Below are positions 8,647 to 23,164 of a DNA stretch of 64,000 nucleotides, piece by piece. Each line of letters begins with the position of its first letter. Position 1 is the stretch's first letter. Under the pieces are notes generated by a model that worked only from the letters and a program-made list of their open reading frames with translations, made no database searches and was not told the DNA's origin. The position numbers were made by a program, and so were the translations under genes. Origin of the DNA: Cohaesibacter marisflavi (GTDB lineage: Bacteria; Pseudomonadota; Alphaproteobacteria; Rhizobiales; Cohaesibacteraceae); the NCBI RefSeq assembly GCF_900115225.1, contig NZ_FOVR01000013.1, positions 62,001 to 126,000 of the forward strand, read 5' to 3'.

Positions 8647-8691
8647 TTAGCTGGTATTTCCGTGTTTAAAAATGTAAATTAAGAATATATT

Positions 8692-8713
8692 GGCGCGCCC
8701 AAAAGGGCCCGCC
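8692..8713 (-). terminator. Hairpin downstream of the FNT-family transporter gene
   Basis: GGCGCGCCC and GGGCCCGCC pair (8 of 9, one C-C mismatch) around AAAA. It is placed 43 nt after the stop of the minus-strand transporter gene and is followed on that strand by AT-rich sequence without a clear T-run. Confidence 0.4.
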
Positions 8714-8755
8714 ACTCATGACTCTCGCGATTTTCTTTATCGGAGGTCCGTTGCA

Positions 8756-9598
8756 TTATTCCAATTCGCGTGCGACCTGGCCGTAGGCCAGCAGGGCAAA
8801 CAATCCGGTACCTCCGGCGATGTTACCCAAAAGCGTGCATACCAGAAGGGCTGCTGCTTGCGAGAGGCCGACTTCGCCGCGCATCGCCAAAAGGAAAAGC
8901 TCGGTAGAGCCTGCAATAACGTGCGTGAAATTGCCGATTGCAATGAGATAGGTGAACATGATGATCACCAGAAATGCGGCTCCGCGTGCGGAAGGGATCA
9001 TCCATACAATTGCCGCGACAAGAAAGCCCGACGTGATGCCCAGGGAAAAGGCTTGTGATAATTCCAGATTGGCATAATGGTGCGAGACAGCGGCCATTCC
9101 ATCCACGTATTCAGGTGGAATGGTTCCGACGAAATGCCCCAATGACGCAGCAAGGAAAGTCCCGCACAGGTTAGCGATAAATACGATTGCCCAAATGCGC
9201 AAAGTGCTCCAGAGCATATTGAGGGATCTGTGCGTAAGAAGAGGCAAAATTGCCGTGATGGTGTTTTCAGTAAATAGCTGCAACCGTCCGAGAATGACCA
9301 GCACAAACCCGACCGTATAGCCAAGATTTTCTATAGCAAATTGATGGGGTGAGCCTTCGAACAGTTTGTGCAGTATCCCTTCAGCCATGACTGACGTTGA
9401 GATGCCTATGCCTGCGGCAACGCCTGACCACCACAAAGATGTTGCTGGCCGGTTGAGCTCTTCCGTGCCTTCACGATGGACCACAGCATAAACAGAGACC
9501 GAACTCAGGCTGTGATGATCGCGCACATCTTTTCTTTCCTGTGCGGTTAACGGGGAATTGTTGCCTGATTTGTCTTTTTTTTCTCTCGGTGCCGACAT
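8756..9598 (-). CDS. Formate/nitrite transporter family protein
   Basis: A 280-residue polytopic inner-membrane protein of the FNT (formate/nitrite transporter) superfamily, closest in look to the YfdC-type branch. After a charged cytoplasmic N-terminus of about 55 residues come six hydrophobic segments. The repeated half-helix features are visible: GIGISTSVMAEG and TENTITAILPLL in the first half, TSGFLVAAIVWMIPSARGAA and GNFTHVIAGSTELFLL in the second. Members form pentameric channels for small monovalent anions; the ion here is unknown. It stands alone between the allophanate hydrolase remnant and the oxidase operon. Confidence 0.82.
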   Translation of the reverse strand: MSAPREKKDKSGNNSPLTAQERKDVRDHHSLSSVSVYAVVHREGTEELNRPATSLWWSGVAAGIGISTSVMAEGILHKLFEGSPHQFAIENLGYTVGFVLVILGRLQLFTENTITAILPLLTHRSLNMLWSTLRIWAIVFIANLCGTFLAASLGHFVGTIPPEYVDGMAAVSHHYANLELSQAFSLGITSGFLVAAIVWMIPSARGAAFLVIIMFTYLIAIGNFTHVIAGSTELFLLAMRGEVGLSQAAALLVCTLLGNIAGGTGLFALLAYGQVARELE

Positions 9599-9773
9599 GA
9601 ATATACCTTTGATCTTGGGAGGTAAGTAGATGCATTATCTGGTCGTTTACCGGGAGAGAAACAACCCTCTCAGGATGTTTTCGCTCATGTTTTCTTCGCG
9701 ATACGGCGCGGGCGTGAAGGTGCGGGGGCAATATGGGGATTGCTGCATGGGTGGAGGGGCTCAGGGAGGGCGC

Positions 9774-11168
9774 CTAGAAGAGCCGTTCGACATCTTTCTG
9801 TTTGAGGGAAGCCAGCTCGCCCAGAGTGATCGGTTTGAGTGGCGACCTGATGGTGAAATAGTCGATTTCCTGCATCGACTTGCCGGTTTGCTCGGCAAAG
9901 AGCGTTGAGATGGTCAGTCCACATCCTCGTCCCTGACAAGGGCCCATACCAGCTCGCAAAAAGGCCTTGAGCTGATTGGGGCCCTGACAGCCAAGGGCAA
10001 TTGTTTTGCGGATCTCCCCTGCGGTAACCTCCTCACAACGGCAGACGATTGTCTTGTCCTGTGGCGATTGTGCGTCTTTAAAGGGTGGATAGGCGCGGTC
10101 AAGGAAGGGGCGAGCGGCATTCTCTTTCAAAAGAGCGCTCTTGAGGGGGGCAGCCCTTTGCTGGAGGTTCTCTTCGTCCAGTTTTCCCAACTCGGAGGCC
10201 AACTTGAGCGCGGCAATCCGGCCGCAAAGGTCGGCTGCCTTGGCTCCACCTATGCCAGCTCCGTCGCCCGCGATAAAGATGGTTGCTTCAGAGCTTTTGC
10301 CCCATTCATCCAGAGAAGGGCTGAAGCAGGCTTGCTGTGCATCCCAATGATGGTCCAGCTGCAGGGCGCGGCTAATCTGGACATTCGGTACAACGCCGTG
10401 ATGCAGCAGGGCCGTGTCGCAAGGGATCGTATGGGAGCGGGCACCACACTGGAAGCTGACGCTTGCAACCGCCCCTTCGCCTTCCAGACGAATGTTGCTG
10501 GCACCGGTGTAGCGCTTAACGCCGCCCATTTTGAGAGCGGACAGCAGCTTCGTGCCCTTGAGGAGATAGCGCCAGCCACGCAAAGCGCCGCCGATATGCT
10601 TCATGGCCTTTGTCAAATCGCCCATGGTCTGGGTTTCGATGATGGCTAGCGGTGGCGTTTTGGCCTTGAGCATCTGGCTTGCCAGAACATAGAGCAAGGG
10701 GCCGGAGCCGATAAGGACAGCCTTGTTGGGAATAAGGCCGGATTGTTTGAGCAGTATCTGGCCTGCGCCCACGGTCATCACGCCGGGCATGGTCCAGCCC
10801 GGCAACGGCATGGGACGTTCAATTGCGCCGGTTGCTATGAGGATACGCTGCGCCTTGATCTGGCGGGCTTGATCTTTGACGGAGCAGGTGATCGTTCCAT
10901 CCTTTTCGACCTGCCAGACAACGGCACCCGCTAGATGGGTGATAAGGGGACTATGCGTGCCTTCAGCCAGAGGCAGGCCATCGAGAAAGTCTTGCCCAAG
11001 CATCGCGCCACGCAGAGGGGCGACGCGCTCGACATCACGGTAGATTTGGCCGCCAACGCTTTGTTGTTCATCAATGAGCACAGAGGCGATGCCGCAATTG
11101 GCTGCCTCGATGGCTGCTGCCATACCGGCAGGACCGGCGCCGATGATGGCAAGTTCGGTATCAAGCAT
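9774..11168 (-). CDS. FAD/NAD(P)-binding subunit of an HcnB/OoxA-like amine dehydrogenase
   Basis: A pyridine-nucleotide-disulphide-type flavoprotein of about 464 residues, resembling the B subunit of hydrogen cyanide synthase and the A subunit of opine oxidases. It has an N-terminal FAD dinucleotide fold (IIGAGPAGMAAAIEAA), a second nucleotide site (AVLIGSGPLLYVLASQML) and a C-terminal BFD-like cysteine cluster (CRCEE ... GPCQGRGCG) that likely holds a [2Fe-2S] centre. The start at 11168 has a GGAAG site at a sensible 6-nt spacing; an ATG two codons upstream (11174) is the alternative. It overlaps the end of the small [2Fe-2S] subunit gene by 8 nt. The complex would oxidise a secondary amine or amino acid and pass electrons towards the respiratory chain; the substrate cannot be read from sequence. 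Confidence 0.85.
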   Translation of the reverse strand: MLDTELAIIGAGPAGMAAAIEAANCGIASVLIDEQQSVGGQIYRDVERVAPLRGAMLGQDFLDGLPLAEGTHSPLITHLAGAVVWQVEKDGTITCSVKDQARQIKAQRILIATGAIERPMPLPGWTMPGVMTVGAGQILLKQSGLIPNKAVLIGSGPLLYVLASQMLKAKTPPLAIIETQTMGDLTKAMKHIGGALRGWRYLLKGTKLLSALKMGGVKRYTGASNIRLEGEGAVASVSFQCGARSHTIPCDTALLHHGVVPNVQISRALQLDHHWDAQQACFSPSLDEWGKSSEATIFIAGDGAGIGGAKAADLCGRIAALKLASELGKLDEENLQQRAAPLKSALLKENAARPFLDRAYPPFKDAQSPQDKTIVCRCEEVTAGEIRKTIALGCQGPNQLKAFLRAGMGPCQGRGCGLTISTLFAEQTGKSMQEIDYFTIRSPLKPITLGELASLKQKDVERLF

Positions 11169-11493
11169 GGTCATCTTCCGTATTCAGATCGGCCGGCGTT
11201 GCCGGTTTGCAGACATTCATGTTGGCTTCAACGCTGGTCTGGCAGGCCTGTTGCGTGATGCCATCTATATTGACAAGGCAGTCATAGCAGACGCCCATCA
11301 TGCAAAAAGGGCCGCGCGGTGCTCCTGTGGCTGGTGCGTTGCGGAAGACGGAAACCCCGGCAGTCAAAAGGCTGGCTGCAAGATTGGCCCCTTCGGGCAG
11401 CATATAGTCCTGACCATCAAAACGAACGGGCACAAGGGATTGGCTGGCCCCGGAAGCATCCTCAAGGGAGTTAAAGCCTGAAGCGGTCTTCAC
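11161..11493 (-). CDS. [2Fe-2S] subunit of the HcnA-like amine dehydrogenase
   Basis: A small ferredoxin-like subunit (about 110 residues). It has the cysteine pattern C-x4-C-x2-C (FCMMGVCYDC) and a fourth Cys 12 residues on (QQAC), the arrangement seen in HcnA and the small subunits of opine and D-hydroxyproline dehydrogenases. It begins at a GTG inside the end of the preceding FAD subunit gene; GGAG stands about 9 nt before this GTG, and longer starts have no such site. The start overlaps the upstream gene by 23 nt and its end overlaps the next gene, so all three are translationally coupled. Confidence 0.85.
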   Translation of the reverse strand: MKTASGFNSLEDASGASQSLVPVRFDGQDYMLPEGANLAASLLTAGVSVFRNAPATGAPRGPFCMMGVCYDCLVNIDGITQQACQTSVEANMNVCKPATPADLNTEDDHA

Positions 11494-12568
11494 TGAATTT
11501 CTCCAAATTTGGCGCGTCATTTTTCTGGTCGAACCAGCTCGGCAGCAGCTTTCCATGAACGGCGGAGAGTGTTATGCCGCTATGGCAGGTTACAAGATAG
11601 GCACCGGGCATGGACTGGCTTTGCTGATAAATGGGCAGGCCATCCTTCGACATCACCCGAAGAGCGCCCCAGCTTCTGACCAATTTTGTCTTAGCAAGGA
11701 AAGGGTGGGTTCTGATGGCTTCTGCTGCGAGGAAGGCTATGCCGTCTATCGTGGTGCCATCATCATAGCCGACCCGCTCGTTTGTTGCGCCGATCTGTAT
11801 GCCGCCTTCATCCACCTGACGTGCGGTAACGGATGGCCGATTGATCATGCGGGGCAGCTTTTCGGTGATGAGCACCTGGCCTCTTTCTGGCTCCAGAGGT
11901 GCAACAAAGCCCATCTTGGGGCCAAGATCCCTTGAGCCCAGCCCCGCAGCGAGGATGACCCGCTCCGAGTGGAACGTCTCATTGTCGGCGCATGTCAGGG
12001 TGAAATGATCGGTTTTGGAAACATCCACAACATGTCGGTTGGTCAAGTAGGTGCCACCCATTTGCTGCACATCTTGTTGCAGGGCGCGTAACAGTTTGAG
12101 CGGGTTTAAATGGCCATCGTCATGGTGCAGGATTCCGGCCACAATATCCGGGCCGAGTGTTGGCTCTTCTTTGCGTAAATCTTCGCCGCACAAAATCTCG
12201 AAAGGGTAGTCGCCGTCAAATTCCTGTTTCAGCCTTTCATAGGACTGCACGGTCTTTTGCAGGCTTTCTTCGCTGAAATGATAGTCAAAACCGCCATTCT
12301 GCTCAAGGCCAAGAGGAATGCCCGTGGCTTCTGTCAGTTCATCGGCAAAGTCGGCATAAAGGGAAGCGGACAGTCTGGACCATTTGGCATAATGGGGGGC
12401 CTTGGCGCCCTTGCCTTGAATCCATATCAGCCCAAAATTGCCCCGGCTTGCCCGGAAGGAGCCATCACTCCCATCGAGTATGGCAACCGTGTGGCCATGC
12501 TTGAGCAGCCCCCAAGCGAGCGACATGCCAACCACGCCGCCACCGATGATCGTGAAATTTGTGTTCAT
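11471..12568 (-). CDS. FAD-dependent amino acid/amine oxidase subunit, HcnC-like
   Basis: A 365-residue DAO-family flavoenzyme (glycine/D-amino acid oxidase fold). It carries the N-terminal FAD motif IIGGGVVGMSLAWGL and the C-terminal GLPIYQQS...GAYLVTCHSGITLSAVHG region typical of the family, where Gly-rich sequence contacts FAD and substrate. It is the first gene of the three-gene HcnCAB-like operon and is the likely catalytic subunit. A 7-2-7 inverted repeat lies about 40 nt upstream. The adjacent GntR regulator, the divergent amidohydrolase and the amino acid ABC transporter suggest it degrades an imported amino acid derivative. Confidence 0.85.
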   Translation of the reverse strand: MNTNFTIIGGGVVGMSLAWGLLKHGHTVAILDGSDGSFRASRGNFGLIWIQGKGAKAPHYAKWSRLSASLYADFADELTEATGIPLGLEQNGGFDYHFSEESLQKTVQSYERLKQEFDGDYPFEILCGEDLRKEEPTLGPDIVAGILHHDDGHLNPLKLLRALQQDVQQMGGTYLTNRHVVDVSKTDHFTLTCADNETFHSERVILAAGLGSRDLGPKMGFVAPLEPERGQVLITEKLPRMINRPSVTARQVDEGGIQIGATNERVGYDDGTTIDGIAFLAAEAIRTHPFLAKTKLVRSWGALRVMSKDGLPIYQQSQSMPGAYLVTCHSGITLSAVHGKLLPSWFDQKNDAPNLEKFSEDRFRL

Positions 12569-12609
12569 TGTAATTTGGTTCGAAAGAAAAACAGGGGGGT
12601 GGTCTTGAA

Positions 12610-12625
12610 AAGATAACCTTATCTT
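12610..12625 (-). promoter_or_regulatory. Inverted repeat upstream of the oxidase operon
   Basis: AAGATAA-CC-TTATCTT is a perfect 7-2-7 inverted repeat about 40 nt upstream of the HcnC-like start. A related half site (TATCTTA) recurs about 35 nt further upstream. A plausible operator for the neighbouring GntR regulator; this is inference only. Confidence 0.4.
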
Positions 12626-12723
12626 ACATCAAACGGGATGGGTAGCGGTATCTTATACTTTCATCCTAGATAGCGTAAAATGACTCACTACCAGACGCGG
12701 GTTTTAATAGATCCAATCTCGTT

Positions 12724-13347
12724 TTAGTTCTCTGTGCTGGCCTGATCAATATGGGCTCGAATAATCGCCTTGAGACGATCGGCATCTTTTTCCGCCAGAG
12801 CATCGACCATAGCGAAATGCTCCTTGCCCGATTGTTCTATGCGGGCATAGCTGGACCATTGCGAAGCCGGAGCAGGGGGAATGCGCAAGCGCAAGTCGGA
12901 GACCAGTTCCATGAGGCTGGCATTCCCACAGGTGGCCAGCAATGCAGTATGAAAGGCAATGTTGGTTTCGTAGATTTCCGTGATCTTGTGTTCGCGAATC
13001 TGATCCATGAAGCGCTGGGCCAACTGGTACAAGTCTTCGATCTGCTCATCGGTAACCTGCTTTACCATGAATTCTGCAGCCGATGTTTCGAGCATAATAC
13101 GGATGTCCCGCACCTCATCCGTCGAGACATCATCGGCATGATGCACATAGTAGCCCCGGTTTGGCTCATAACGAACGATGCGCTTATTGCAGAGCGTCTC
13201 CAGCGCCTTTCTTGTTTCCGAGCGACTGGCTTCATAGCGACGCTGAAGATCAATCTGCTTCAACCAGCTGCCCGGCGAGAACACACCCGCGCTAATATCT
13301 GCGGTCAGAAGGTCTATCAGGTCTTTGCTGGACTTCTTCTTTCTCAA
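12724..13347 (-). CDS. GntR-family (FadR/FCD) transcriptional regulator
   Basis: A 207-residue regulator with an N-terminal winged helix (residues 10-70; LKQIDLQRRYEASRSETRKALETL is the recognition region) and an all-helical FCD effector domain. The FCD domain carries the metal/ligand residues typical of the family (RDIRIMLE, NIAFHTALL, EHFAMVDAL). The only usable start is a TTG; no in-frame ATG occurs before the FCD domain. It lies between the oxidase operon (same strand) and the divergent amidohydrolase/transporter operon, and probably controls both in response to the substrate. Confidence 0.88.
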   Translation of the reverse strand: MRKKKSSKDLIDLLTADISAGVFSPGSWLKQIDLQRRYEASRSETRKALETLCNKRIVRYEPNRGYYVHHADDVSTDEVRDIRIMLETSAAEFMVKQVTDEQIEDLYQLAQRFMDQIREHKITEIYETNIAFHTALLATCGNASLMELVSDLRLRIPPAPASQWSSYARIEQSGKEHFAMVDALAEKDADRLKAIIRAHIDQASTEN

Positions 13348-13457
13348 ATCTATCCACCACTCTTCTGGTCATAAATGATTAAATTCGCATCAGAATCCCG
13401 TTTGCCTCATTTTTCACCATGCACAGAGATTGCGCAACCCTAAAAATTGTGTTCAAT

Positions 13458-13469
13458 ATTGGTGCCAAT
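13458..13469. promoter_or_regulatory. Inverted repeat between GntR regulator and amidohydrolase gene
   Basis: ATTGG-TG-CCAAT, a 5-2-5 inverted repeat in the 218-nt divergent intergenic region, about 100 nt before the amidohydrolase start. GntR/FCD operators often have this kind of short dyad. Weak evidence. Confidence 0.3.
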
Positions 13470-13565
13470 TTCGCAATAATGTTTAATCTCATGGGTTTAT
13501 TAGATTTGGTTTTGCGAATTTATAAGAATGCGTTTTTTAAGTAAGGTTCGAAGGAAGTATCCCCA

Positions 13566-14987
13566 ATGCAGAATAGCGACGAAATCTGGTCTCGTGTCGA
13601 CGAGTTGTCCGAAGACTTTTGCGGCTTGTCGGATCGGGTGTGGGAGACGCCCGAGCTTTGTTTCAAAGAGGACAGATCCGCTGCCGAGCATATGGCTATG
13701 CTGGAAAAGCATGGGTTCAAGGCTGAGGCTGGCGTTGCGGGAATGCCAACAGCCATCATGGCTGAAGCTGGCAGTGAAGGACCGGTGATTGCCATTCTGG
13801 GCGAATATGATGCGCTGCCCGGCCTTAGTCAGGAACATGGTGTTGCAGAACGCCGGGAAATCGAAGAAGGCGGAAATGGTCATGGGTGCGGGCACAATCT
13901 GCTCGGCGCAGGCTCCATGCTTGCTGCGGCGGCTGTCAAGGATTGGCTGAAGGAAAAGGGCATAAAGGGGCGTGTGCGCTATTATGGTTGTCCGGCAGAA
14001 GAGGGCGGCTCGGCCAAGGGCTTCATGGTGCGCGAAGGGCTGTTTGAGGATGTTGATGTCGCCATCTGCTGGCATCCGGCCCCCTTTGCTGGCGTCAACA
14101 AACCTATCTCGCTGGCTTGTAATGAACTGATCTTTACTTTCACAGGGCGCGCCTCTCATGCTGCGGCCTCTCCCGAGCTGGGACGCAGCGCGCTTGACGC
14201 CGTTGAACTCATGAGCGTTGGTGTGAACTATATGCGTGAACATATGGCCTCTACTGCCCGCATTCATTATGCGGTGATCGATAGTGGCGGTGTTGCGCCA
14301 AACGTCGTGCAGCCACGCGCCGTCGTGCGCTATCTGGTGCGCGATCGTGAATTGCCGGACATGCAGGCCTTGGTCGAACGCGTCAAAAAGGTCGCCGATG
14401 GGGCAGCGTTGATGACGGAAACCTCTGTGGAAAGCGTGATCGTTTCCGGTGATGGCAACCTGATTGGCAATGATCCGCTTGAAGAGCTGATGCACCAGAT
14501 GCTGGAACGCCTTGGTCCTCCGCAATATTCCGAAGAAGACAAGGACTTTGCCCGCGAAATTCAGGCAACCCTGTCAAAGGAAGATATCGAAGCTGCATAT
14601 AAACGCTTTGGGCTCAAACCACGATTTGATGAACCTCTGTGCGAGAGCATTACGCCGCTTAACTCCGGCGACGGACGTCATGTCGGCTCGACTGATGTGG
14701 GCACCGTAAGCTGGGTGGTTCCGACCGTTCAGATGCGCGGGGCAACTTATGCCGTGGGCACTCCGGGCCATTCCTGGCAGTTGGTGGCACAGGGCAAGAC
14801 GCCCGCCGCACACAAGGGTATGGAGCATACGGCCAAGATCATGGCTGCAACGGCTTGTGAACTGTTCCTTGATCCGGCCAAGATCGAGGCTGCCAAGGTA
14901 GATTTCGCTGACAAGCTCAACGGCCGACCCTTCATCAACCCGATCCCGGATGATTGCGATCCGGAGCTGCCTGAAACCAAGGAATAG
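13566..14987 (+). CDS. M20-family amidohydrolase, AbgB (p-aminobenzoyl-glutamate hydrolase subunit B) type
   Basis: A 473-residue metallo-hydrolase of the M20D/AbgB subfamily, which cleaves amide bonds of N-acyl amino acids. Visible family features are ILGEYDALPGLSQ, the metal-binding GNGHGCGHNLLGAGS and PAEEGGSAKGFMVREG with the catalytic Glu pair. The dimerisation domain contains ASHAAASPELGRSALDAVELM, and a late His-containing segment near the C-terminus (GTPGHSW). Length matches AbgB. It leads a plus-strand operon with an amino acid ABC transporter, so the imported ligand is probably an amide or N-acyl amino acid that is hydrolysed here, with the product then oxidised by the divergent HcnABC-like enzyme. 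The true substrate is unknown. Confidence 0.88.
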   Translation: MQNSDEIWSRVDELSEDFCGLSDRVWETPELCFKEDRSAAEHMAMLEKHGFKAEAGVAGMPTAIMAEAGSEGPVIAILGEYDALPGLSQEHGVAERREIEEGGNGHGCGHNLLGAGSMLAAAAVKDWLKEKGIKGRVRYYGCPAEEGGSAKGFMVREGLFEDVDVAICWHPAPFAGVNKPISLACNELIFTFTGRASHAAASPELGRSALDAVELMSVGVNYMREHMASTARIHYAVIDSGGVAPNVVQPRAVVRYLVRDRELPDMQALVERVKKVADGAALMTETSVESVIVSGDGNLIGNDPLEELMHQMLERLGPPQYSEEDKDFAREIQATLSKEDIEAAYKRFGLKPRFDEPLCESITPLNSGDGRHVGSTDVGTVSWVVPTVQMRGATYAVGTPGHSWQLVAQGKTPAAHKGMEHTAKIMAATACELFLDPAKIEAAKVDFADKLNGRPFINPIPDDCDPELPETKE

Positions 14988-15065
14988 GCAGGTCACTGTC
15001 TCAATCCTTTTTTCCCGATCCCGTTATCAATCTGCGACGGGGTCCCGACAAGGAGACTAAAACCA

Positions 15066-15776
15066 GTGAGCTTTTTTCAACTGATGGGCTTTGGTGAAGG
15101 TGGTTGGGGTGCCTTCATGCTCATGGGGGCGCTGGTCACCATGGCACTGGCGCTCTGTGGCTTTTCCATTGGCGCCTGCTTTGGCGCCTTTGCCGCATGG
15201 GCCAAGATATCGGGCAACCGGTTTACGCGCACCATTGCAGATATTTACACCACCGTGTTGCGTGGTATCCCCGATCTGCTGGTCATCTATCTGTTCTATT
15301 TCGGTGGCAGCGCCTTTCTCACATGGTTGGGCCGCCTGTTCGGCTCGGACGGCTTTATCGGGCTGCCAGGCTTTCTGGCTGGCGCGATGGCTATCGGCAT
15401 CACATCAGGCGCACAGCATACGGAAGTGTTCCGCGGGGCCTATCGCGCTGTTGCGAAAGGCGAGATTGAAGCCGCCGTCGCTTGTGGCATGCCGCGCGCC
15501 ATGCGCTTTCGCCGTATTGTCGCTCCGTTGGTTTTGCGTCATGCGTTGCCCGGTCTTGGTAATGTCTGGCAGATCGTGCTGAAAGAATCCGCGCTGGTCT
15601 CTGTTACCGGCGTTGTGGAGCTACTGCGCCAAAGTCAAGTGGGGGCAGGCTCGACGCGGCAGCCGTTCGATTTCTATTTTGCAGCCGCCATTCTCTATCT
15701 CTGCATCACCACCATCTCGAGCATCAGCTTTCACACGGCCGAGAAACGGTTCAATAAAGGGGTGAGAAGAAGCTGA
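15066..15776 (+). CDS. Polar amino acid ABC transporter permease (HisQ/OccQ type)
   Basis: Inner-membrane permease, 236 residues, GTG start with AAGGAG about 10 nt upstream. It carries the HAAT-family landmarks TVLRGIPDLLVIYLFYFGG and the EAA loop EAAVACGMPRAMRFRRIVAPLVLRHALPGLGN. It pairs with the following permease, overlapping it by one base. It resembles the HisQ/OccQ/ArtQ subunit of histidine, opine and arginine importers, consistent with a cationic or opine-like amino acid ligand. Confidence 0.9.
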   Translation: MSFFQLMGFGEGGWGAFMLMGALVTMALALCGFSIGACFGAFAAWAKISGNRFTRTIADIYTTVLRGIPDLLVIYLFYFGGSAFLTWLGRLFGSDGFIGLPGFLAGAMAIGITSGAQHTEVFRGAYRAVAKGEIEAAVACGMPRAMRFRRIVAPLVLRHALPGLGNVWQIVLKESALVSVTGVVELLRQSQVGAGSTRQPFDFYFAAAILYLCITTISSISFHTAEKRFNKGVRRS

Positions 15777-16513
15777 TGGATATGCAATTTTTCTGGGAGT
15801 CGTTGGTCACCCTGATCCCCGGCATTCCGCTTACTCTGCAATTGGCGTTTCTTTCCACCTTCCTTGGAGCTTTTATCGCTCTAGGGCTGGCGATGATGCG
15901 ACTCTCGGGCATTCGCCCGCTAGACTGGTTTGCGCGGGGCTATCTGTTTGTATTCCGAGGCTCGCCGCTGCTGGTGCAGCTGTTCCTCATCTATTACGGG
16001 CTCAGCCAGTTTCCCGCCGTACGCCATTCCTTCGCCTGGACTTTCCTGCGTGATCCCTATTGGTGCGCCATCATCGCGTTGACGCTCAACACGGCGGCCT
16101 ATGCCAGTGAGGTCATTCGTGGCGGGCTTTTGTCTGTCCCTCATGGGCAGGTGGAAGCGGCGCGCGCTTGTGGCATGTCGGGCTTCAAGCTGTTCCGCCG
16201 CATTGTCTTGCCGCTGGCCATCCGTCAGGCTCTGCCGGCCTATGGCACCGAGCTGATCCTGATGGTCAAGGCGACCTCGCTGGCGTCCATTATCACCATC
16301 ATGGAAATCACAGGTCTTGCCGCCAAGCTGGTTTCCGAGACCTATCGGGTGATTGAGGTCTTTGTGGTCGCCGGTGCTATCTATCTGGCAATCAACTTTA
16401 TCCTCACCCGCATCATCATGGCATTTGAATATAAGCTGACGCCGCATTTGCGCGAGCCTCGCATTACCAAAGTGCTTGCCCTTGAAAATGAATCTGCTGG
16501 AGAAATCTCGTGA
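15776..16513 (+). CDS. Polar amino acid ABC transporter permease (HisM/OccM type)
   Basis: Second permease, 245 residues, overlapping the first by one base (TGATG context). It shows FRGSPLLVQLFLIYYGLSQFPAVR and the EAA loop EAARACGMSGFKLFRRIVLPLAIRQALPAYG. FPAVRHS in the loop is typical of the HisM/OccM group. It forms the membrane channel with the preceding protein. Confidence 0.9.
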   Translation: MDMQFFWESLVTLIPGIPLTLQLAFLSTFLGAFIALGLAMMRLSGIRPLDWFARGYLFVFRGSPLLVQLFLIYYGLSQFPAVRHSFAWTFLRDPYWCAIIALTLNTAAYASEVIRGGLLSVPHGQVEAARACGMSGFKLFRRIVLPLAIRQALPAYGTELILMVKATSLASIITIMEITGLAAKLVSETYRVIEVFVVAGAIYLAINFILTRIIMAFEYKLTPHLREPRITKVLALENESAGEIS

Positions 16514-17292
16514 CCAGTTCTGCCTCTCAAAACAGCCCTGTGGCTGTCAGCCTGACCGATCTGCACAAGTATTTCGGTGATCTCGAAGTGCTCAAGGGCG
16601 TTACCATGAAGGCCCACGAGGGCGAGGTCGTGTCTATTCTCGGCTCGTCCGGTTCGGGCAAATCCACCATGTTGCGCTGTATCAACATGCTTGAAACCCC
16701 GACGTCAGGCACCGTGACTGTTGGCGAGGAAACCATCAAGCTGGTGACCGACCGCAAGGGCGTCGTTAAACCGGCTGATCGCAAGCAGGTGGACCGGTTG
16801 CGGACCCGTGTTGGTATGGTGTTCCAGTCCTTCAATCTTTGGTCTCACAAGACCATTCTGGAGAATGTGATCGAAGCGCCGATCCATGTGCAGGGACGCG
16901 ACAGAAAAGACTGCATCGAGGAAGCACAGGATATTCTCGCCAAGGTCGGTATCGCCGACAAACGGGATTTCTACCCCTCCCATCTTTCCGGTGGGCAGCA
17001 GCAACGTGCCGCCATTGCGCGTGCTTTGGCCCAGCATCCAGATGTGTTGCTGTTTGATGAACCGACCTCGGCGCTTGATCCCGAGTTGGTCGGTGAGGTG
17101 CTGCGCGTGATGAGGGGGCTAGCTGAAGAGGGCCGTACCATGCTGGTCGTGACCCATGAAATGAGCTTTGCCCGGGATGTGTCGAACCGCGTCGTCTTCC
17201 TGCATCAGGGGCAGATCGATGCCGAGGGGAGCCCTGATGCTCTCTTTAACGATATGAGCAATGAGCGTTTTCAGAAATTTATTGCCGGCTAA
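16510..17292 (+). CDS. Polar amino acid ABC transporter ATP-binding protein (HisP/OccP type)
   Basis: Cytoplasmic ATPase, 260 residues, with Walker A GSSGSGKST, Q-loop VFQSFNLWSH, signature LSGGQQQRAAIARAL, Walker B VLLFDEPTSALDPE and the H-loop THEMSFARDV. The NLWSH form of the Q-loop and the TSALDPELVGEVL sequence are typical of the HisP/OccP branch. It starts with GTG overlapping the permease stop by 4 nt. Confidence 0.94.
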   Translation: MTSSASQNSPVAVSLTDLHKYFGDLEVLKGVTMKAHEGEVVSILGSSGSGKSTMLRCINMLETPTSGTVTVGEETIKLVTDRKGVVKPADRKQVDRLRTRVGMVFQSFNLWSHKTILENVIEAPIHVQGRDRKDCIEEAQDILAKVGIADKRDFYPSHLSGGQQQRAAIARALAQHPDVLLFDEPTSALDPELVGEVLRVMRGLAEEGRTMLVVTHEMSFARDVSNRVVFLHQGQIDAEGSPDALFNDMSNERFQKFIAG

Positions 17293-17360
17293 CGGCGGCA
17301 GTCAAAAGCTCCGACTCTCCGCTAGAGATGGTCGGGAATCACAACAGAAGGGAAACTGAA

Positions 17361-18209
17361 ATGAAAGTCTGGACTCGACTTCTCGGGGTGGCTATGACCG
17401 CAGCAATGCTGGTGGCTGGCCCTGCGATGGCAAAAGAATGGAAAACTGTCAAATTGGGCACCGAAGGCGCCTTTCCTCCGTGGAACTCCACCAAGGCTGA
17501 CGGCACGCTGGAAGGCTTTGAAATTGATCTGGCCAACATTCTGTGCGAGCGCATGGACGTGAAATGTGAATGGGTTGTCCAGTCCTGGAAGGGCATTATC
17601 CCTGCGCTGAATGCTGGCAAGTTCGACGTTATCATGTCCGGTATGTCTGCAACGGCTAAGCGCGCTGAAGTGATCGATTTCTCGATTCCTTACGGTTCTA
17701 CCGGTCAGACCTTCGGCGTTCTGTCAGATTCCGAGCTTGTGGATCTGCCGCTCAAAGGCACTGTCTTCCCGCTCGCTTCCAAACCGGAAGAAGCCAAAAA
17801 AGCCATCGAAGAAATCAAGCCGATGTTCGAAGGCAAAATCATTGGCGTTCAGTCTTCCGCTATCGCAGAGCGCTTTTTGCAGGAAAATCTGGCTGACGTG
17901 GCTGAAATCCGCGAATATGGCAAAACGCAGGAACATGATCTCGATCTGATGTCCGGCCGTGTTGATGCCATCATGGCGTCTACTGCCTATATCTCCACGG
18001 CGATGAAAGACCCGGCTAACGAAGGCATGGTTCTGGCTGGCCCACGTTTCCAGGGTGGTATTCTGGGCAAAGGCAGCTCCATCGGTATGCGCAAGGGTTC
18101 CGACGACCTCAAGGCCATGTTCGACAAGGCCATTGCTTCTGCTCGCGATGACGGCACCATCAAGGATCTGTCCATCAAATGGTTCGGCTTTGACGTAACC
18201 GTCTACTAA
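17361..18209 (+). CDS. Polar amino acid ABC transporter substrate-binding protein
   Basis: Periplasmic receptor of about 282 residues, cluster-3 solute-binding fold. A signal peptide ends at AMAKEW. It then shows KLGTEGAFPPWNSTKADGTLEGFEIDLANILCERM and DVIMSGMSATAKRAEVIDFSIPY, the lysine/arginine/ornithine/histidine- and opine-binding pattern in which the GFEIDLA acidic residue holds the ligand amino group. The start at 17361 is preferred over 17328 because it begins the signal peptide and has AAGGGAAA upstream. It closes the transporter operon and is followed by a strong terminator. Confidence 0.92.
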   Translation: MKVWTRLLGVAMTAAMLVAGPAMAKEWKTVKLGTEGAFPPWNSTKADGTLEGFEIDLANILCERMDVKCEWVVQSWKGIIPALNAGKFDVIMSGMSATAKRAEVIDFSIPYGSTGQTFGVLSDSELVDLPLKGTVFPLASKPEEAKKAIEEIKPMFEGKIIGVQSSAIAERFLQENLADVAEIREYGKTQEHDLDLMSGRVDAIMASTAYISTAMKDPANEGMVLAGPRFQGGILGKGSSIGMRKGSDDLKAMFDKAIASARDDGTIKDLSIKWFGFDVTVY

Positions 18210-18261
18210 GACAGAACCAGCCTTGCCGCGCTTGTGGCAGGGTTGCTATTTGAAAAATGAT

Positions 18262-18297
18262 CGCCCCTTTGTGTTTCTGGCAAAGGGGCGTTTTCTG
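18262..18297 (+). terminator. Intrinsic terminator after the amino acid transporter operon
   Basis: Perfect 10-bp stem CGCCCCTTTG/CAAAGGGGCG with a 9-nt loop, followed by TTTTCTGTTT. It also stands just past the end of the convergent sulfotransferase gene. Confidence 0.85.
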
Positions 18298-18300
18298 TTT

Positions 18301-19011
18301 CTACCGGGATTGGATATCCGTCGGCGCGTCCAGGTTTTTTCGCTTGTTGAGCCGCTCTACGTCTCTTAGCTCCTGCATTGTAAAACCGAGAAAATTCACC
18401 AGCGGTTCGCAGATATCGTCGTGATCTTCATATTGAAATTTGTGGACTTTTCCCAAATCCTGCCAAAAATTCAAAATGCTTTCGGTGTCATAATACCAGT
18501 CAGCGTTGATACGCTCCTCTTCTGGAAAGCTGTTTAACAGAGGGGCAACTTTGGGATCTTTCTGCAACTGGTTTTCCCAGCTTTGCTTCCAGCTGGTCAA
18601 ATCTCGCAAAACAAGCAGAATCTCGACTTTTCTGTCCAACTTGGCAAAGAAGGCTGACAGCTTTTCCTTTTCCGTTTCCTCGCGCATAAAGCAAAAGACT
18701 TCTGCCGAAGCAATGAGGGTATCTTCCGGATGGGTATTCACGGCCTTTGCGAAGCTATCTTCAAAGGTGGCTTTTTCGTGCTCTTGTAATTCTGAAATCT
18801 GGCCCCTCAGACGTGCGCCTGTTTTGAGGCACGCGCGTAAATGTAGATGGGAGAGATCAAACAAGTTGAAGCGGCGAGCCCTATTGCGGTCCAGTTCGAA
18901 GATCGGTCGGACATTGTTTTCTATCATATGCTTCTGGTTTGCCCGCAGCAGACGCTGAAAGGAGGTCGTCCCGGTCTTGTGAACACCGATATGTATGATT
19001 AGCTTCTTCAA
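18301..19011 (-). CDS. Sulfotransferase-like protein
   Basis: A 236-residue protein beginning KKLIIHIGVHKTGTTSFQRLL, the P-loop-like 5' phosphosulfate-binding motif of PAPS-dependent sulfotransferases. A second region LVLRDLTSWKQSWENQL resembles the 3' phosphate-binding segment. The acceptor (glycan, lipid or polysaccharide) is not predictable. It lies next to a second sulfotransferase on the same strand with an 89-nt gap, suggesting a small unit that sulfates a surface molecule. Catalytic residues between the motifs are not certain. Confidence 0.72.
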   Translation of the reverse strand: MKKLIIHIGVHKTGTTSFQRLLRANQKHMIENNVRPIFELDRNRARRFNLFDLSHLHLRACLKTGARLRGQISELQEHEKATFEDSFAKAVNTHPEDTLIASAEVFCFMREETEKEKLSAFFAKLDRKVEILLVLRDLTSWKQSWENQLQKDPKVAPLLNSFPEEERINADWYYDTESILNFWQDLGKVHKFQYEDHDDICEPLVNFLGFTMQELRDVERLNKRKNLDAPTDIQSR

Positions 19012-19100
19012 GATGTCTTCTTTCGCTTCAAGTGTCTGGCCTTTTGCATGCGGGACGTCTTGGATATCTCACGACAAGGCTAAGGGGCGGATCTGACCAT

Positions 19101-19964
19101 TCAATAGCCGAAATGCTCATAATCCTGCTTGTAGATCTGGCTGCAAAGATCGCGGGCTTCCGGGCTGTCATAGAGTGCAAAAAGGTCGGCTTTTTGGGCT
19201 GGCGTTGTCTGGGCGTTTTTCTGTTTCGGGCTCAGTGGGCTTGGAAATCCGATTTTCTCTGAAGCTTCGGCATAGAAGCTATCCATATCTTCCATCCGTC
19301 CGATGATCGTTGGTTCAAAGAGATCGGGCTTGATGAAGGTATATTGCGGTTGCCAATGACCATTCACGGCGTCGGCACCTTCAAGCTCGATTTGCCACTG
19401 GATGTAATTGAGAAAAAGCAGAAAGCCTTTGGGCGTATTCATGTCTTTTTCCCAATCGAAACGGAAGAAGGCATTGAGCTTGAAGCGATCTGGCGCGAAC
19501 CAGCGGCTCTCCTGCTTTTGCGATTTGCAAAGATAGAGAAAGGCCGATATTGCACGCTCGAAGGGATTGCGCACGACGCAAAGGCGCTCCATGGAACGCT
19601 CAGGTGCTTTGAAATGCTCCATATTATAGCCCTGCAACAGAGCGCGGGAGAATATGCCATAGATTGGCAGAGTGTGGATTTCCGAGGCCGGATTGATGTC
19701 TATGGGATGCTCTGCCTTGACCGTGAGCGGCACGCCGAATTCTTGCTCAAATAGCCAGTTCAGAACCGAGGTTGAGGCATTCTTGCCTGTCGAAATAAAT
19801 GCCCAGCGCATGGAAGGTGGGAAAATGATCTGAAGAAAGAAATCCCGTGCCGCTTCCTTGTTGGGGAAGTGCTCGGGATGGGTCTCGATCGCTTCTTGAA
19901 GGAATTTTGCATTTTGGTTCGGCGTCAGTTTGTCAAGAAAGGGCTTGTGGGGGCTATGGTCCAT
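19101..19964 (-). CDS. Sulfotransferase family protein (Sulfotransfer_2-like)
   Basis: About 287 residues. FISTGKNASTSVLNWLFEQEFG gives the 5' phosphosulfate-binding loop and RLCVVRNPFERAISAFLYL gives the 3' phosphate-binding motif, both in the form seen in carbohydrate (chondroitin/heparan type) sulfotransferases found in marine bacteria. The ATG at 19964 is used; a TTG three codons earlier is possible. It is upstream of the other sulfotransferase gene and preceded by a 350-nt region containing two dyads. Substrate unknown. Confidence 0.75.
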   Translation of the reverse strand: MDHSPHKPFLDKLTPNQNAKFLQEAIETHPEHFPNKEAARDFFLQIIFPPSMRWAFISTGKNASTSVLNWLFEQEFGVPLTVKAEHPIDINPASEIHTLPIYGIFSRALLQGYNMEHFKAPERSMERLCVVRNPFERAISAFLYLCKSQKQESRWFAPDRFKLNAFFRFDWEKDMNTPKGFLLFLNYIQWQIELEGADAVNGHWQPQYTFIKPDLFEPTIIGRMEDMDSFYAEASEKIGFPSPLSPKQKNAQTTPAQKADLFALYDSPEARDLCSQIYKQDYEHFGY

Positions 19965-20112
19965 GATGATCAATACTACTTGGAAAAAAGAGTAATAAGA
20001 TTTGCTATTGCGCCTGAGTATAGGGCGCTGAACGCTCTTATAAGATCTGGCTTATAGGCAAATCAGCCAGCGGGCAGGCGCTCATGGATAAGTGTAGGCA
20101 GATCGGGGACGT

Positions 20113-20314: not shown

Positions 20315-20869
20315 CTAGACATATTCTTTGAACAGCTCTTCGGCTGCGTTGGAAATGACCACATGATTGACAAGGATGCCGGCATCCTTGATTTCTTCTA
20401 TGCCTGCTGCAACGGCGGCTTTGACGGCGCCAACATCGCCGCAGAGCTGGAGGAAGCCTTTGCCGCCGACTGCCATGGCAATATGAACTCTGAGAAGCGT
20501 GACATTGGCTGCTTTGGCCGCAGCGTCGGCTGCCCATACAATGCTTGACGAGGAAAAGGTCTCGATGATGCCGAGGGCTTTGCCTTTGGTTTGCGGCAGT
20601 TCGACTGATCCAGTCAGGGACGGGAATAGTTGCGGATCGACGTTAGGCAGGAATATCTTGTCCACCTGAAAGCCTGCAGCAAGGCGTTCGCCCGTATCGA
20701 GCGCGGTCTGGACTGCAGAGACATTGCCTCCAACCACGATCATATATTTGCCCGGGCAGATGGTCCGGGCGACCAGCAGTTTCACATCCGCTGCCTTGAG
20801 CATGCCGTCCTGTACCAGATATCCGGCTGCAATGCTGGAGAGTTCCAAAATTCCGATGGCGAGTGGCAT
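20315..20869 (-). CDS. pduT: Tandem-BMC-domain microcompartment shell protein, PduT type
   Basis: A 184-residue protein made of two BMC (bacterial microcompartment) domains, residues about 3-85 and 95-180. It aligns along its whole length with PduT, a trimeric shell protein of the propanediol-utilisation compartment that carries a [4Fe-4S] cluster in its central pore. The cluster ligand Cys38 is conserved in ARTICPGKY, and the second domain has the expected KGKALGIIETFS...RVHIAMAVGGKG. It lies 61 nt downstream of a PduS-like gene with AAGGA before the ATG. PduT is known to bind PduS, so the two presumably act together. No other shell protein, signature enzyme, aldehyde dehydrogenase or cobalamin enzyme is present in the window. 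Confidence 0.85.
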   Translation of the reverse strand: MPLAIGILELSSIAAGYLVQDGMLKAADVKLLVARTICPGKYMIVVGGNVSAVQTALDTGERLAAGFQVDKIFLPNVDPQLFPSLTGSVELPQTKGKALGIIETFSSSSIVWAADAAAKAANVTLLRVHIAMAVGGKGFLQLCGDVGAVKAAVAAGIEEIKDAGILVNHVVISNAAEELFKEYV

Positions 20870-20930
20870 GAAGGCATTCCTTGTTTTCTACTGTTCTGTT
20901 TGTTGTTTCCTGCAACCGAGCGATCAGGGA

Positions 20931-22286
20931 TCAGGCAAAGGGGGCTATAACAATTTCCCTATCGTTGACCGCAGTTATCTGTCCATCAACGGGGGAGTGG
21001 ATTTCAGCACCCAGCTTGTCTCCGACCGAGGCAATCTTCTGGTATCGGGTGACCTTGTCGCCTGTTGTCACCATGGGCGTGGCCGGGGCGCCGATATGCT
21101 GACTGGTGCGGATGGTCAATTGTTTGGGATGAAGGGCGAAGGCTGATAGGGCGCCTTTGTTCTGGAAGCGATCGAGCGCCAGCCGGGTCATGATTTTCTT
21201 CACCGGCGTGCGGCGATAGTCGATCAGCGGATGGGCGTTGTCCTCGTTGGCCGCGTCAAGAGTGGCCTTGGCGGCCATAGACTGTTTCTTGCTCGCGATG
21301 GTAACCTGTGCCGGATAAAGCCCTTCAGGGCAGGAGACGAGGGTGCAGAGGTTGCATTCTGCGCAGGCCAGCGTGTTCGGCAGAATGGCAAGCGTCTGAT
21401 CTGTCCCCTCGGCGAAGGACGAAAACATCAAGTTGCGCATGGCCTTGTGGGGCTCGACCGGATGACCCAGCAAATGGCGCGGACAGAGCTCGCTGCAGAT
21501 GGAGCATTGATCACAGGCGGATTTGCCGATCCGTTTGACCCGCTTTTCCTGCGCTGCCGTTTCGAAACGCTGGATGAGAGGATGGTCTTTGGCAAAAACC
21601 AACAAGCCGCCAGTGGTCTTGGTAACCGGCTCATCAAGGCTGGTCGCCAGTTTGCCCATCATGGGGCCTCCAACGATAACGGCGAAATCCTCTTCCATAT
21701 GGGCGAGATCTGCGCCCTTCAGATTGGGGTGGGCCAGAGCAATCACTTCGCGGAAGGGCATGCCGATGGGTACTTCCACCGAGACGGGCTGTTGAACATC
21801 GCCGCCAACGGTGATGAATTTGGTCACCAGAGGCGTGCCAAGGCCGATATTGTAGATCGTCTCCACATTGTTGACGATAACCCCTTGGCTGCTAGGAAGG
21901 GCTCTGGGGGCAACGATGCGACCGGTTGTTTCATATATGAGGGTGATTTCATCTCCTACGGGGTAGAAGTCACGCAGGCCCATGATTTCGATGCGGTCGG
22001 GTGCTGGATTGGTTTCTTTCAGATGGGTAATCAGGTCGGTATATTTCGCCTTGACCCCGATGATGCACCGCTGGGCGGCGGTTAGATCCAGACAGGTTAC
22101 AAGCCCCTTGTAGAAAATCTCGCTTTTTAGACGCAGCAGCTCTTTGTCCTTGTGCAACAGCGGTTCGCATTCGGCTGCGTTGACAATGAATATTTCCGTT
22201 TCGCTGCCCAGTTTCACATAAGTGGGAAAGCCTGCTCCGCCAGCCCCAACGATGCCAAACTCCTTGATCTGTTCTGTTGTTGCCAT
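20931..22286 (-). CDS. pduS: PduS-like flavo-iron-sulfur reductase (RnfC family)
   Basis: A 451-residue electron-transfer protein related to RnfC/Nqo1. In Pdu microcompartments PduS reduces cob(II)alamin for diol dehydratase using NADH. Visible parts are the N-terminal NADH/FMN region with GIVGAGGAGFPTYVKL, the VNAAECEPLL segment, VNNVETIYNIG, and GGPMMGKLATSLDEPVTKTTGG. Two [4Fe-4S] motifs follow: CDQCSICSELCPRHLLGH and CAECNLCTLVSCPEG. A C-terminal barrel-sandwich-type domain is rich in QHIGAPATP and HSPVDG. Motifs appear intact and length is normal. GAGGG lies 6 nt before the ATG. It leads a two-gene operon with the PduT-like gene. Without a neighbouring cobalamin enzyme its electron acceptor is unclear. 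Confidence 0.88.
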   Translation of the reverse strand: MATTEQIKEFGIVGAGGAGFPTYVKLGSETEIFIVNAAECEPLLHKDKELLRLKSEIFYKGLVTCLDLTAAQRCIIGVKAKYTDLITHLKETNPAPDRIEIMGLRDFYPVGDEITLIYETTGRIVAPRALPSSQGVIVNNVETIYNIGLGTPLVTKFITVGGDVQQPVSVEVPIGMPFREVIALAHPNLKGADLAHMEEDFAVIVGGPMMGKLATSLDEPVTKTTGGLLVFAKDHPLIQRFETAAQEKRVKRIGKSACDQCSICSELCPRHLLGHPVEPHKAMRNLMFSSFAEGTDQTLAILPNTLACAECNLCTLVSCPEGLYPAQVTIASKKQSMAAKATLDAANEDNAHPLIDYRRTPVKKIMTRLALDRFQNKGALSAFALHPKQLTIRTSQHIGAPATPMVTTGDKVTRYQKIASVGDKLGAEIHSPVDGQITAVNDREIVIAPFA

Positions 22287-22593
22287 GGGGCCCTCATTTC
22301 AATTTTTACGATCGACGAAGCGGATAGGCGACAGCCTTTTTGCGCGCAAGGACGCCGAATCTTGACTGGCATGCGCGGCGGATTAGGTCTCTCGGTTTTG
22401 GCTATCGCTTGGGTGCCACCAACTTGTGCCTCGGGGCACGGACCAAGGAGCCGGGTTGTGTCTGGTATTCTCGCTTAGCACGCGGGATAACCGGCTCCGA
22501 AACAGGGTCTGTGCAGCCTTGTCAAAGAGGAGCCTGTGGCTCAACTCTCCCGTGGCTTCTTCTGGATAACCAAGGCCTGATGAAAGACCTTTG

Positions 22594-22632
22594 AATAAGT
22601 ATAACTTATTGATTTGACGCATAATGTGTCAA
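22594..22632. promoter_or_regulatory. Two adjacent inverted repeats upstream of the pduST-like operon
   Basis: AATAAGT-ATA-ACTTATT (22594-22610) and TTGACGC-ATAAT-GTGTCAA with one G-T mismatch position (22614-22632) lie back to back about 310 nt upstream of the PduS-like start. Candidate regulator sites or part of a promoter region. Confidence 0.35.
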
Positions 22633-23164
22633 CGAGACTCATTTGCCATTCGAGGGTAAAAAATTGCTATCGCCGCACCTGATAAGCGCTGTGTGCATCT
22701 AGGTGATAGGGGCTGTTCGCTTGAGTCGCTCTTGGGGGATCGACCGCACACTCTGTGTGTTCCTCAATGCGTTTGGCGGGCCTTGGGGCGGTGTGCTGTT
22801 TGAAGATCGGTCAAGGCGATTCATGAAAGTAGTTATTGTAGCATTACTTCGAAATAATAAATGGAGATTTGGGAGACGGATAAGAAGCCTTCTTGTTGTT
22901 TTTATGTGTGATTTTTCTGGTTATGTTTGAGTAAAAGTGTTTCCTAATCTGTTTAGATTTTTATGTCTGTATGATTGATAAGAATATATGATCAATTCGA
23001 TGTATAAACGAGTGTTGTGCTAGCGGTTAAATTTGGTTAAATGACTGATTTGTTTCCAATAATAGAATATAAATACTATTAAGTCATTTGGCTGATGAAC
23101 AAAAGTACTATGGTATCTCTAATCAAACTCTCAGTACGTTTACTTAGTCTAAGTTAGACGCCGT

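What the first reader, a model, noticed from the sequence alone, without database searches (positions are those of the whole stretch)
20315..22286. Isolated PduS-PduT electron-transfer pair with no microcompartment genes around it
The two genes encode a PduS-like NADH/FMN/[4Fe-4S] reductase with both cysteine clusters, and a tandem-BMC shell protein that keeps Cys38, the pore cluster ligand of PduT. No shell hexamers or pentamers, signature enzyme, aldehyde dehydrogenase, phosphotransacylase or cobalamin enzyme occurs within about 20 kb to the left or 40 kb to the right. Known: PduS and PduT interact and PduS reduces cobalamin in Pdu compartments. Inference: this is a satellite part of a compartment encoded elsewhere, or an independent shell-derived electron-conducting module.
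Basis: partly seen in the sequence, partly recalled or inferred. Interest (0 to 1): 0.72.

Follow-up and report, generated by a model that had tools for sequence, protein, structure and literature searches.

The report
Remote redox add-on for a microcompartment
Two neighbouring genes make an electron-carrying shell protein and its partner enzyme for a protein-shelled bacterial compartment whose other genes lie elsewhere in the same genome, and both sites carry a near-matching promoter sequence, so the pair is probably a separately placed accessory switched on together with the compartment.

Summary
pduS (20931-22286, -) and pduT (20315-20869, -) are intact, keep all Fe-S ligand cysteines, and are the only BMC-domain or recognisable compartment genes found in the window. 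They are not orphans. The same genome carries, on another contig, a full B12-independent glycyl-radical BMC locus of 1,2-propanediol (GRM3) type that lacks both genes. Among 18 genomes of the genus, pduST occurs in 5, all among the 7 with this locus, and in 0 of the 11 without it. In four relatives it lies 0.4-1.1 Mb from the locus. Both promoters share a 24-base element followed by TTGA: a pattern made from main-locus promoters alone hits two places in this 5.34-Mb genome, that promoter and the pduS promoter, and a weight matrix from main-locus sites ranks all five pduS sites next. Best reading: a promoter-linked, relocatable satellite adding an NADH/FMN/Fe-S electron path to the compartment. 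Satellites and pduST in such compartments are known; a free-standing redox pair with a matched promoter is a new variant. The independent-module idea is disfavoured: 10 of 10 remote genomes tested with isolated pduST have other BMC genes. Electron direction is untested.

The parts
20931..22286 (-). pduS: 451-aa NADH/FMN/2x[4Fe-4S] oxidoreductase-like protein (Complex1_51K, SLBB, Fer4_17, RnfC_N)
   Evidence: orthologues 98/98/89/80% identical in four genus genomes
20315..20869 (-). pduT: 184-aa tandem-BMC (BMC-T) shell protein with pore cysteine Cys38 (CPGKY)
22643..22666 (-). Putative regulator site CAATTTTTTACCCTCGAATGGCAA, near-copy of the element in front of the compartment operon
   Evidence: one of only two hits in the whole genome to a pattern built from the compartment promoters (up to 2 mismatches)
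22627..22632 (-). Putative -35 box TTGACA, 10 bases after the element (9 in the compartment promoter)
   Evidence: read by eye from the aligned sites
22603..22608 (-). Putative -10 box TAAGTT, 18 bases after the -35 box (same spacing as in the compartment promoter)
   Evidence: read by eye; transcription start not measured
22287..22602 (-). Long leader (about 310 bases) between the putative promoter and pduS; less conserved than the element, no Rfam match

Best explanation
pduST is a two-gene satellite of a GRM3-type (glycyl-radical, B12-independent 1,2-propanediol) microcompartment, encoded on another contig here and 0.4-1.1 Mb away in four relatives. SHOWN by sequence: both genes intact with all Fe-S ligands; a complete compartment locus without pduST in the same genome; co-occurrence in the genus; a common promoter element. 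INFERRED: the regulator coded at the compartment locus (PocR-domain histidine kinase plus AraC-type response regulator) switches both sites on with the same inducer. PduT trimers then enter the shell and put a [4Fe-4S] cluster in a pore; PduS docks on PduT from inside, oxidises NADH made by the aldehyde dehydrogenase and passes electrons through the cluster to a cytosolic acceptor. That would let more aldehyde go to acyl-CoA and ATP instead of half being spent as alcohol to recycle NAD+. Sub-probabilities: satellite of this compartment 0.93; common regulation 0.85; electron export as main role 0.5; feeding electrons inward to the radical-SAM activase 0.25; corrin reduction 0.08; other 0.17.
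For: Own genome: five BMC-domain hits over the cut-off on C25, beside the two of pduT, the only BMC-P gene on C25, and with them a GRE of 867 aa with GCVEP Cys451 and RVAGYS loop, activase, acylating AldDH, PduL, EutJ, PduB, Fe-ADH, SAM synthetase, PocR-kinase, AraC response regulator. GRE best PDB matches: 9rco (unnamed glycyl radical protein), glycerol dehydratase 1r8w, diol dehydratase 5i2a; it passes the PFL2-3 model and fails the choline-lyase cut-off (536 of 1050 bits); it has an internal insert of about 50 aa like the internal encapsulation peptide described for the R. palustris GRM3 enzyme (PMC5311937, abstract and passages). Genus: pduT 5 of 18, pduS the same 5 of 18, compartment 7 of 18; Fisher one-sided P = 0.0025. 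Promoter. In G014 pduST sits at a different chromosomal site, yet the element is there. Remote genomes: 10 of 10 with isolated pduST have other BMC genes. Role: NADH-dependent reduction of PduS FMN and Fe-S and PduS-PduT co-purification are reported for the Pdu homologue (PMC2982820, passages); a PduT cluster at +99 mV makes export downhill (PMC6325248, passages).
Against: 2 of 7 compartment genomes (G011, G015) have no pduST, so it is not needed for the compartment. The genus genomes are related, so the Fisher value overstates independence. The spacing between element and -35 box differs by one base (9 versus 10) and the element differs at 5 of 24 positions in this genome; three of the five pduS sites (G003, G013, G014) need more than two mismatches and are missed by the pattern. 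That pattern was built from main-locus promoters, but after the likeness had been seen by eye. The response regulator was read only in this genome, and the kinase in the other six only up to the end of the fetched stretch. No expression, localisation or redox data exist here. EutB is present in 3 of 5 pduST genomes, so a B12 client is not excluded in those.
Confidence: 0.8

Rival explanations
1. pduST feeds electrons inward: NADH -> PduS -> a flavin carrier -> the radical-SAM activase, to install or repair the glycyl radical inside the closed shell.
For: Proposed in print for GRM PduS (PMC6325248, passages). The compartment locus encodes a radical-SAM activase with extra Fe-S domains, a SAM synthetase and a 276-aa protein with a sub-threshold Flavoprotein match (20.8 bits, cut-off 22.7).
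Against: 2 of 7 compartment genomes lack pduST. NADH (-320 mV) and the Pdu PduS/PduT potentials quoted are too high to reduce a radical-SAM cluster without energy input (the activase potential is recalled). A GrpU-like pore protein is in 7 of 7 compartment loci and could serve that role.
Confidence: 0.25
2. pduST is an independent electron-conducting module unrelated to any compartment.
For: It is physically alone in the window; similar isolated pairs occur in other phyla (8 of the 80 nearest remote loci, with at least 8 kb held on both sides).
Against: 0 of 11 genus genomes without BMC genes have it; 10 of 10 remote genomes with isolated pduST have other BMC-domain genes; common promoter element.
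Confidence: 0.03
3. PduS acts as a corrin (cobalamin) reductase for a B12 enzyme such as ethanolamine ammonia-lyase.
For: Pdu PduS reduces cobalamin (PMC2982820, passages); EutB is in 3 of 5 pduST genomes, about 14 kb from pduST in G003.
Against: EutB not found in G013 and G014 while the glycyl-radical compartment is in 5 of 5; no cobalamin riboswitch in the window or at L014/L015. The diol dehydratase large-subunit search found 0 of 5, but its controls were silent too, so it shows nothing.
Confidence: 0.07
4. The pair is a decaying remnant of a lost Pdu-like locus.
For: Isolated position; absent from 13 of 18 genus genomes.
Against: Both frames open, all ligand residues invariant in 5 of 5, 80-98% identity across the genus, promoter block more conserved than leader and flanks.
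Confidence: 0.03

Closest known systems
PduS-PduT pair of GRM and PDU microcompartment loci (Ferlez et al. 2019, PMC6325248; Parsons et al. 2010, PMC2982820; passages seen)
   Same: Adjacent genes, domain order, both cysteine motifs, pore cysteine in C-P-G-K-Y; goes with a GRM3-type compartment
   Different: In the passages seen the pair is described as part of the compartment locus; here it stands alone, away from the locus, with its own matched promoter
Satellite / satellite-like BMC loci (Axen et al. 2014, PMC4207490; Sutter et al. 2021, PMC8217296; passages seen)
   Same: Shell gene without a full shell set, and a full BMC locus elsewhere in the genome
   Different: Carries a dedicated redox enzyme plus its pore protein. 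The satellite examples in the passages I saw were CcmK3/K4, BMC-P with aldolase, EUT modules and AldDH; the Sutter main text has 0 mentions of PduS or PduT
GRM3 compartment of Rhodopseudomonas palustris BisB18 (PMC5311937; abstract and passages seen)
   Same: 1,2-propanediol-type glycyl-radical dehydratase with an internal insert, activase, AldDH, PduL
   Different: Its main text has 0 occurrences of PduS or PduT. The locus here has a GrpU-like shell protein (by the gene content given in PMC6325248 nearer to subtype GRM3b; subtype not tested by tree), SAM synthetase, a PocR-kinase system and the remote pduST

Membership tests
Satellite BMC locus (Axen 2014 criteria) | Insufficient shell complement (PF00936 or PF03319 only) | tested here: met
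   Only two PF00936 domains, both in pduT, on this contig; no PF03319 there
Satellite BMC locus (Axen 2014 criteria) | Shell genes contiguous | tested here: met
   Single shell gene
[quoted passage not shown]
   C25 locus with BMC-H, BMC-T and BMC-P
Satellite BMC locus (Axen 2014 criteria) | No other BMC-related gene next to the shell gene (otherwise 'satellite-like') | tested here: not met
   pduS is adjacent: by Axen's wording 'satellite-like'; by Sutter's wider wording (shell proteins with or without enzymes) a satellite
PduT | Two BMC domains in tandem, pore cysteine in CPGKY | tested here: met
PduT | NCBIfam TIGR02526 equivalog cut-off (250.3 bits) | tested here: not met
   113.1 bits: PduT-like, not that equivalog
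PduT | [4Fe-4S] cluster in the trimer pore | not testable with these tools
   needs purified protein
PduS | Domains 51K, SLBB, Fer4_17, RnfC_N and two four-cysteine motifs | tested here: met
   motifs as in passages of PMC2982820
PduS | NADH-dependent FMN/Fe-S reduction; binding to PduT | not testable with these tools
   assay needed
RnfC / PrdC | NCBIfam cut-offs (245.95 and 490 bits) | tested here: not met
   211.3 and 213 bits; the genome has a separate RnfC-like protein, 33% identical
GRM3 compartment (the main locus) | Diol-dehydratase-type GRE with internal encapsulation-peptide insert, cognate activase, AldDH, PduL, BMC-H/T/P | tested here: met
GRM3 compartment (the main locus) | Substrate is 1,2-propanediol | tested here: inconclusive
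   Nearest named PDB relatives are glycerol and diol dehydratases; no assay

The most novel reading that the evidence does not exclude
pduST is a self-contained, relocatable redox cassette with its own copy of the compartment's regulator site: it can sit elsewhere in the chromosome and still be made in step with a GRM3 compartment that already has one Fe-S pore protein (GrpU-like), thereby turning a redox-balanced compartment into one that exports electrons. Isolated pduST pairs in Desulfoluna, Bryobacterales and other remote genomes would be the same kind of cassette for other compartments.
Probability: 0.4. Interest if true: 0.6.

Novelty: new variant of a known kind. Interest (0 to 1): 0.45.

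Why it matters
What PduS and PduT do in B12-independent compartments is called an open question in the 2019 review (PMC6325248, passages). Here nature provides the comparison: close relatives with the same compartment, five with and two without the pair, and the pair at its own locus with its own promoter. It can be removed without touching the compartment operon, which would make a clean test of whether electrons cross the shell and in which direction.

Tried and rejected
A palindrome-like TTGAC...GTCAA near the pduS promoter was considered as the regulator site and dropped: it is not conserved in G014. A 71-base stretch of the pduS promoter found no match by blastn at the compartment promoters beyond 11-base words; the likeness shows only in the alignment and pattern tests. 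Conserved neighbours as functional partners were rejected: the amidohydrolase/ABC cluster and the branched-chain-type ABC operon flank pduST in 4 of 5 genomes, but in G014 pduST has other neighbours, and the two sulfotransferase-like genes are missing at this site in G013. The diol dehydratase large-subunit search shows nothing either way because its controls were silent. Structure prediction and fold search were not run: for the main-locus proteins the stated list of allowed sources does not include loci taken with the fetch from genomes, and for pduS/pduT the sequence evidence sufficed.

Full report
What is there. pduS (20931-22286, -) and pduT (20315-20869, -) are complete, 61 bases apart and on one strand. 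PduS has Complex1_51K, SLBB, Fer4_17 and RnfC_N domains in that order and both four-cysteine motifs, invariant in five genus members. PduT has two BMC domains and its best PDB matches are PduT-type shell proteins; Cys38 in CPGKY is invariant in five of five. Neither protein reaches an NCBIfam equivalog cut-off (PduT-like 113 of 250 bits; RnfC 211 of 246; PrdC 213 of 490), so the names are family-level. The window shows no other gene of a compartment: at E <= 1 the BMC domains on this contig are only those of pduT, and the only BMC-P gene of the genome is elsewhere. A tblastn of 16 compartment proteins against the window found only the second of these, weakly, but also missed pduT's own BMC domains, so it is a blunt test. 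Of the window's ORFs, 35 were given to Pfam, not all.

The rest of the compartment. The same genome (5.34 Mb, 41 contigs) has 13 BMC-domain matches at E <= 1: two in pduT, five over the cut-off together on contig C25, and six below the cut-off scattered; the single BMC-P gene is also on C25. The C25 locus reads, in transcription order: DJ-1-like protein, glycyl-radical enzyme (867 aa), iron alcohol dehydrogenase, BMC-H, PduB-type BMC-T, a second BMC-H (222 aa), PduL, EutJ, a 276-aa protein with a sub-threshold Flavoprotein match, BMC-P, HbpS-like protein, acylating aldehyde dehydrogenase, a small BMC-H, glycyl-radical activase, S-adenosylmethionine synthetase, a histidine kinase with a PocR sensory domain, and an AraC-type response regulator. 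Fifteen of these 17 genes were found in the six other compartment genomes (which covers all but the small BMC-H and the response regulator; the kinase is cut by the end of the fetched stretch). The enzyme's best PDB matches are 9rco (unnamed glycyl radical protein), glycerol dehydratase 1r8w and diol dehydratase 5i2a; it fails the choline-lyase cut-off (536 of 1050 bits); it carries the catalytic Cys (GCVEP), the glycyl loop (RVAGYS) and an internal insert of about 50 residues. An internal insert of this kind is described as an encapsulation peptide in 1,2-propanediol GRM enzymes (PMC6325248, passages; PMC5311937, abstract and passages). The small BMC-H has the pore motif GTCPQH, the GrpU signature given in PMC6325248, in 7 of 7 compartment loci; by the gene content given there that is nearer to subtype GRM3b. 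The locus has no pduS or pduT (own genome; the other six).

Who has the pair. Of 81 genomes searched with PduT (E <= 1e-10), 5 have it, all in the genus (18 genomes, own included). PduS (E <= 1e-40) is in the same 5 of 20 searched. BMC domains (E <= 1e-5) are in 7 of 18 genus genomes and in neither of two other family members; the glycyl-radical enzyme at 87-100% identity is in the same 7. Thus pduST is in 5 of 7 genomes with the compartment and in 0 of 11 without (Fisher one-sided P 0.0025; 0.0034 without the 64%-complete G005). The genomes are related, so this P is only a guide. In four relatives pduST is 0.40, 0.46, 0.48 and 1.12 Mb from the compartment on the same contig (coordinates); in this genome the two are on different contigs and the distance is unknown. 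A second, 35-36% identical glycyl-radical enzyme occurs in genomes with and without pduST and is not a likely partner.

The common promoter. Aligning the upstream regions of pduS (5 genomes) and of the compartment operon (7 genomes) shows in each one block that is better conserved than its surroundings. The blocks resemble each other: CAATTTTTTACCCTCGAATGGCAA-N10-TTGACA-N18-TAAGTT for pduS and CAATTCTTTACCCCTCAATGACAA-N9-TTGATA-N18-TAATGT for the compartment (box assignment by eye). I saw this likeness first and then tested it with a pattern made only of columns conserved in the seven compartment promoters: with up to two mismatches it has 11 matches in 18 genomes (17 of the genus and one other genus): 7 compartment promoters, 2 pduS promoters (this genome and G002) and 2 strays (G015:C42, G017:C7) without TTGA at that spacing; the backward control pattern has none. 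In this genome the only two matches are the two promoters. The pduS sites of G003, G013 and G014 have more than two mismatches and were therefore not in that list. A weight matrix from the seven compartment sites (five identical ones down-weighted), scanned over 374,016 bases on both strands of genus sequence already fetched (chosen around these loci, not the whole genomes), ranks the seven compartment sites first, as it must, and the five pduS sites next (28.2 to 24.2 bits), followed by one 20.0-bit site without TTGA and then 13.2 and lower. In G014 pduST lies at another place in the chromosome with other neighbours, yet it keeps the block, so gene pair and promoter travel or are selected together. 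The likely regulator is the PocR-kinase/AraC pair at the compartment locus; this is inference.

Origin and wider survey. Of the 80 nearest remote PduT loci kept (of 493 found), 78 have PduS close by; 53 have another shell gene within the DNA held, 8 have none although at least 8 kb is held on both sides, and 19 have none but less DNA. The four nearest are Desulfobacterium, Desulfoluna and deltaproteobacterial records at 55-60% identity; two of them, L061 and L064, have GRE, activase, PduL and BMC-H close by. I searched the genomes of the 8 isolated cases plus two with one shorter flank (L076, L082) for BMC domains: 10 of 10 have others elsewhere than in pduT (no completeness is given and most are metagenome-assembled; BMC-P was not sought there). 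Isolated pduST pairs therefore recur, and in the cases examined always with other shell genes.

How it probably works. For the Pdu homologue it is reported that PduS binds FMN, has two [4Fe-4S] centres, is reduced by NADH and co-purifies with PduT (PMC2982820, passages), and that the PduT cluster has +99 mV (PMC6325248, passages). Downhill flow is therefore NADH -> PduS -> PduT -> outside. In this compartment NADH should be made by the aldehyde dehydrogenase and used by the alcohol dehydrogenase; an exit for electrons would free aldehyde for acyl-CoA and ATP. That two of seven compartments do without the pair fits an optional exit better than an obligatory activator. The inward route to the activase, proposed in the same review, is not excluded. 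EutB, a B12 enzyme, is present in 3 of 5 pduST genomes, near pduST in G003 (about 14 kb), on another contig here and in G002, so a corrin role cannot be fully excluded there, but it cannot explain G013 and G014.

Known or new. Satellite loci are defined in PMC4207490 (passages) and PMC8217296 (passages), and PduS/PduT inside GRM loci in PMC6325248 (passages: 47 of 65 GRM3 loci encode PduT or PduS). By the 2014 wording this is 'satellite-like' because pduS adjoins the shell gene; by the 2021 wording it is a satellite. I found no description of a free-standing pduST satellite or of a regulator site shared by satellite and main locus; that rests on searches of an open-access library and on passages, not whole texts or supplements, so it is a weak negative.

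Noticed in passing
L014 12606-13754 (own genome, contig C25): An S-adenosylmethionine synthetase gene lies inside the compartment locus next to the radical-SAM activase, in this genome and the six others; it may supply SAM to the activase.
   Followed up: partly
L014 14768-14950 (C25:89767-89949): A small BMC-H with a GTCPQH pore (GrpU signature) is in 7 of 7 compartment loci, so genomes with pduST code for two different putative Fe-S pore proteins.
   Followed up: partly
L015 2698-3528: A fast-evolving 276-aa protein (39-93% identity in six relatives) with a sub-threshold Flavoprotein match sits in the compartment operon; a possible electron carrier.
   Followed up: no
window 9774-20000: An amidohydrolase/ABC transporter/FAD-oxidase cluster beside pduST is shared by G002, G003 and G013 at this site and was not found next to the flanking ABC operon in the five other genus genomes examined: a variable region.
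   Followed up: partly
window 18301-19973: Two sulfotransferase-like genes (one under the Pfam cut-off) lie directly downstream of pduT; both are missing at this site in G013.
   Followed up: no
window 34048-53730: A phenylacetate (paa) degradation cluster with thiolase, PaaA/PaaC-type proteins, aldehyde dehydrogenase-MaoC fusion, CoA ligase-like, enoyl-CoA hydratases, a second aldehyde dehydrogenase and a branched-chain-type ABC transporter.
   Followed up: no
window 1773-1877 (-): TPP riboswitch (Rfam, 76 bits), upstream of a solute-binding protein gene at 605-1651.
   Followed up: no
window 7398-7474 and 7563-7639: Two tRNA-Met (CAT) genes in tandem.
   Followed up: no
L063 (Desulfoluna limicola) 8367-10555: An isolated pduS-pduT pair in a complete genome that has 23 other BMC-domain hits, in one region at about 1.35-1.45 Mb.
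   Followed up: partly
G000:C19:66758-69121: A second glycyl-radical enzyme (801-aa frame, about 35% identical), of a kind also present in three genus genomes without BMC genes.
   Followed up: no
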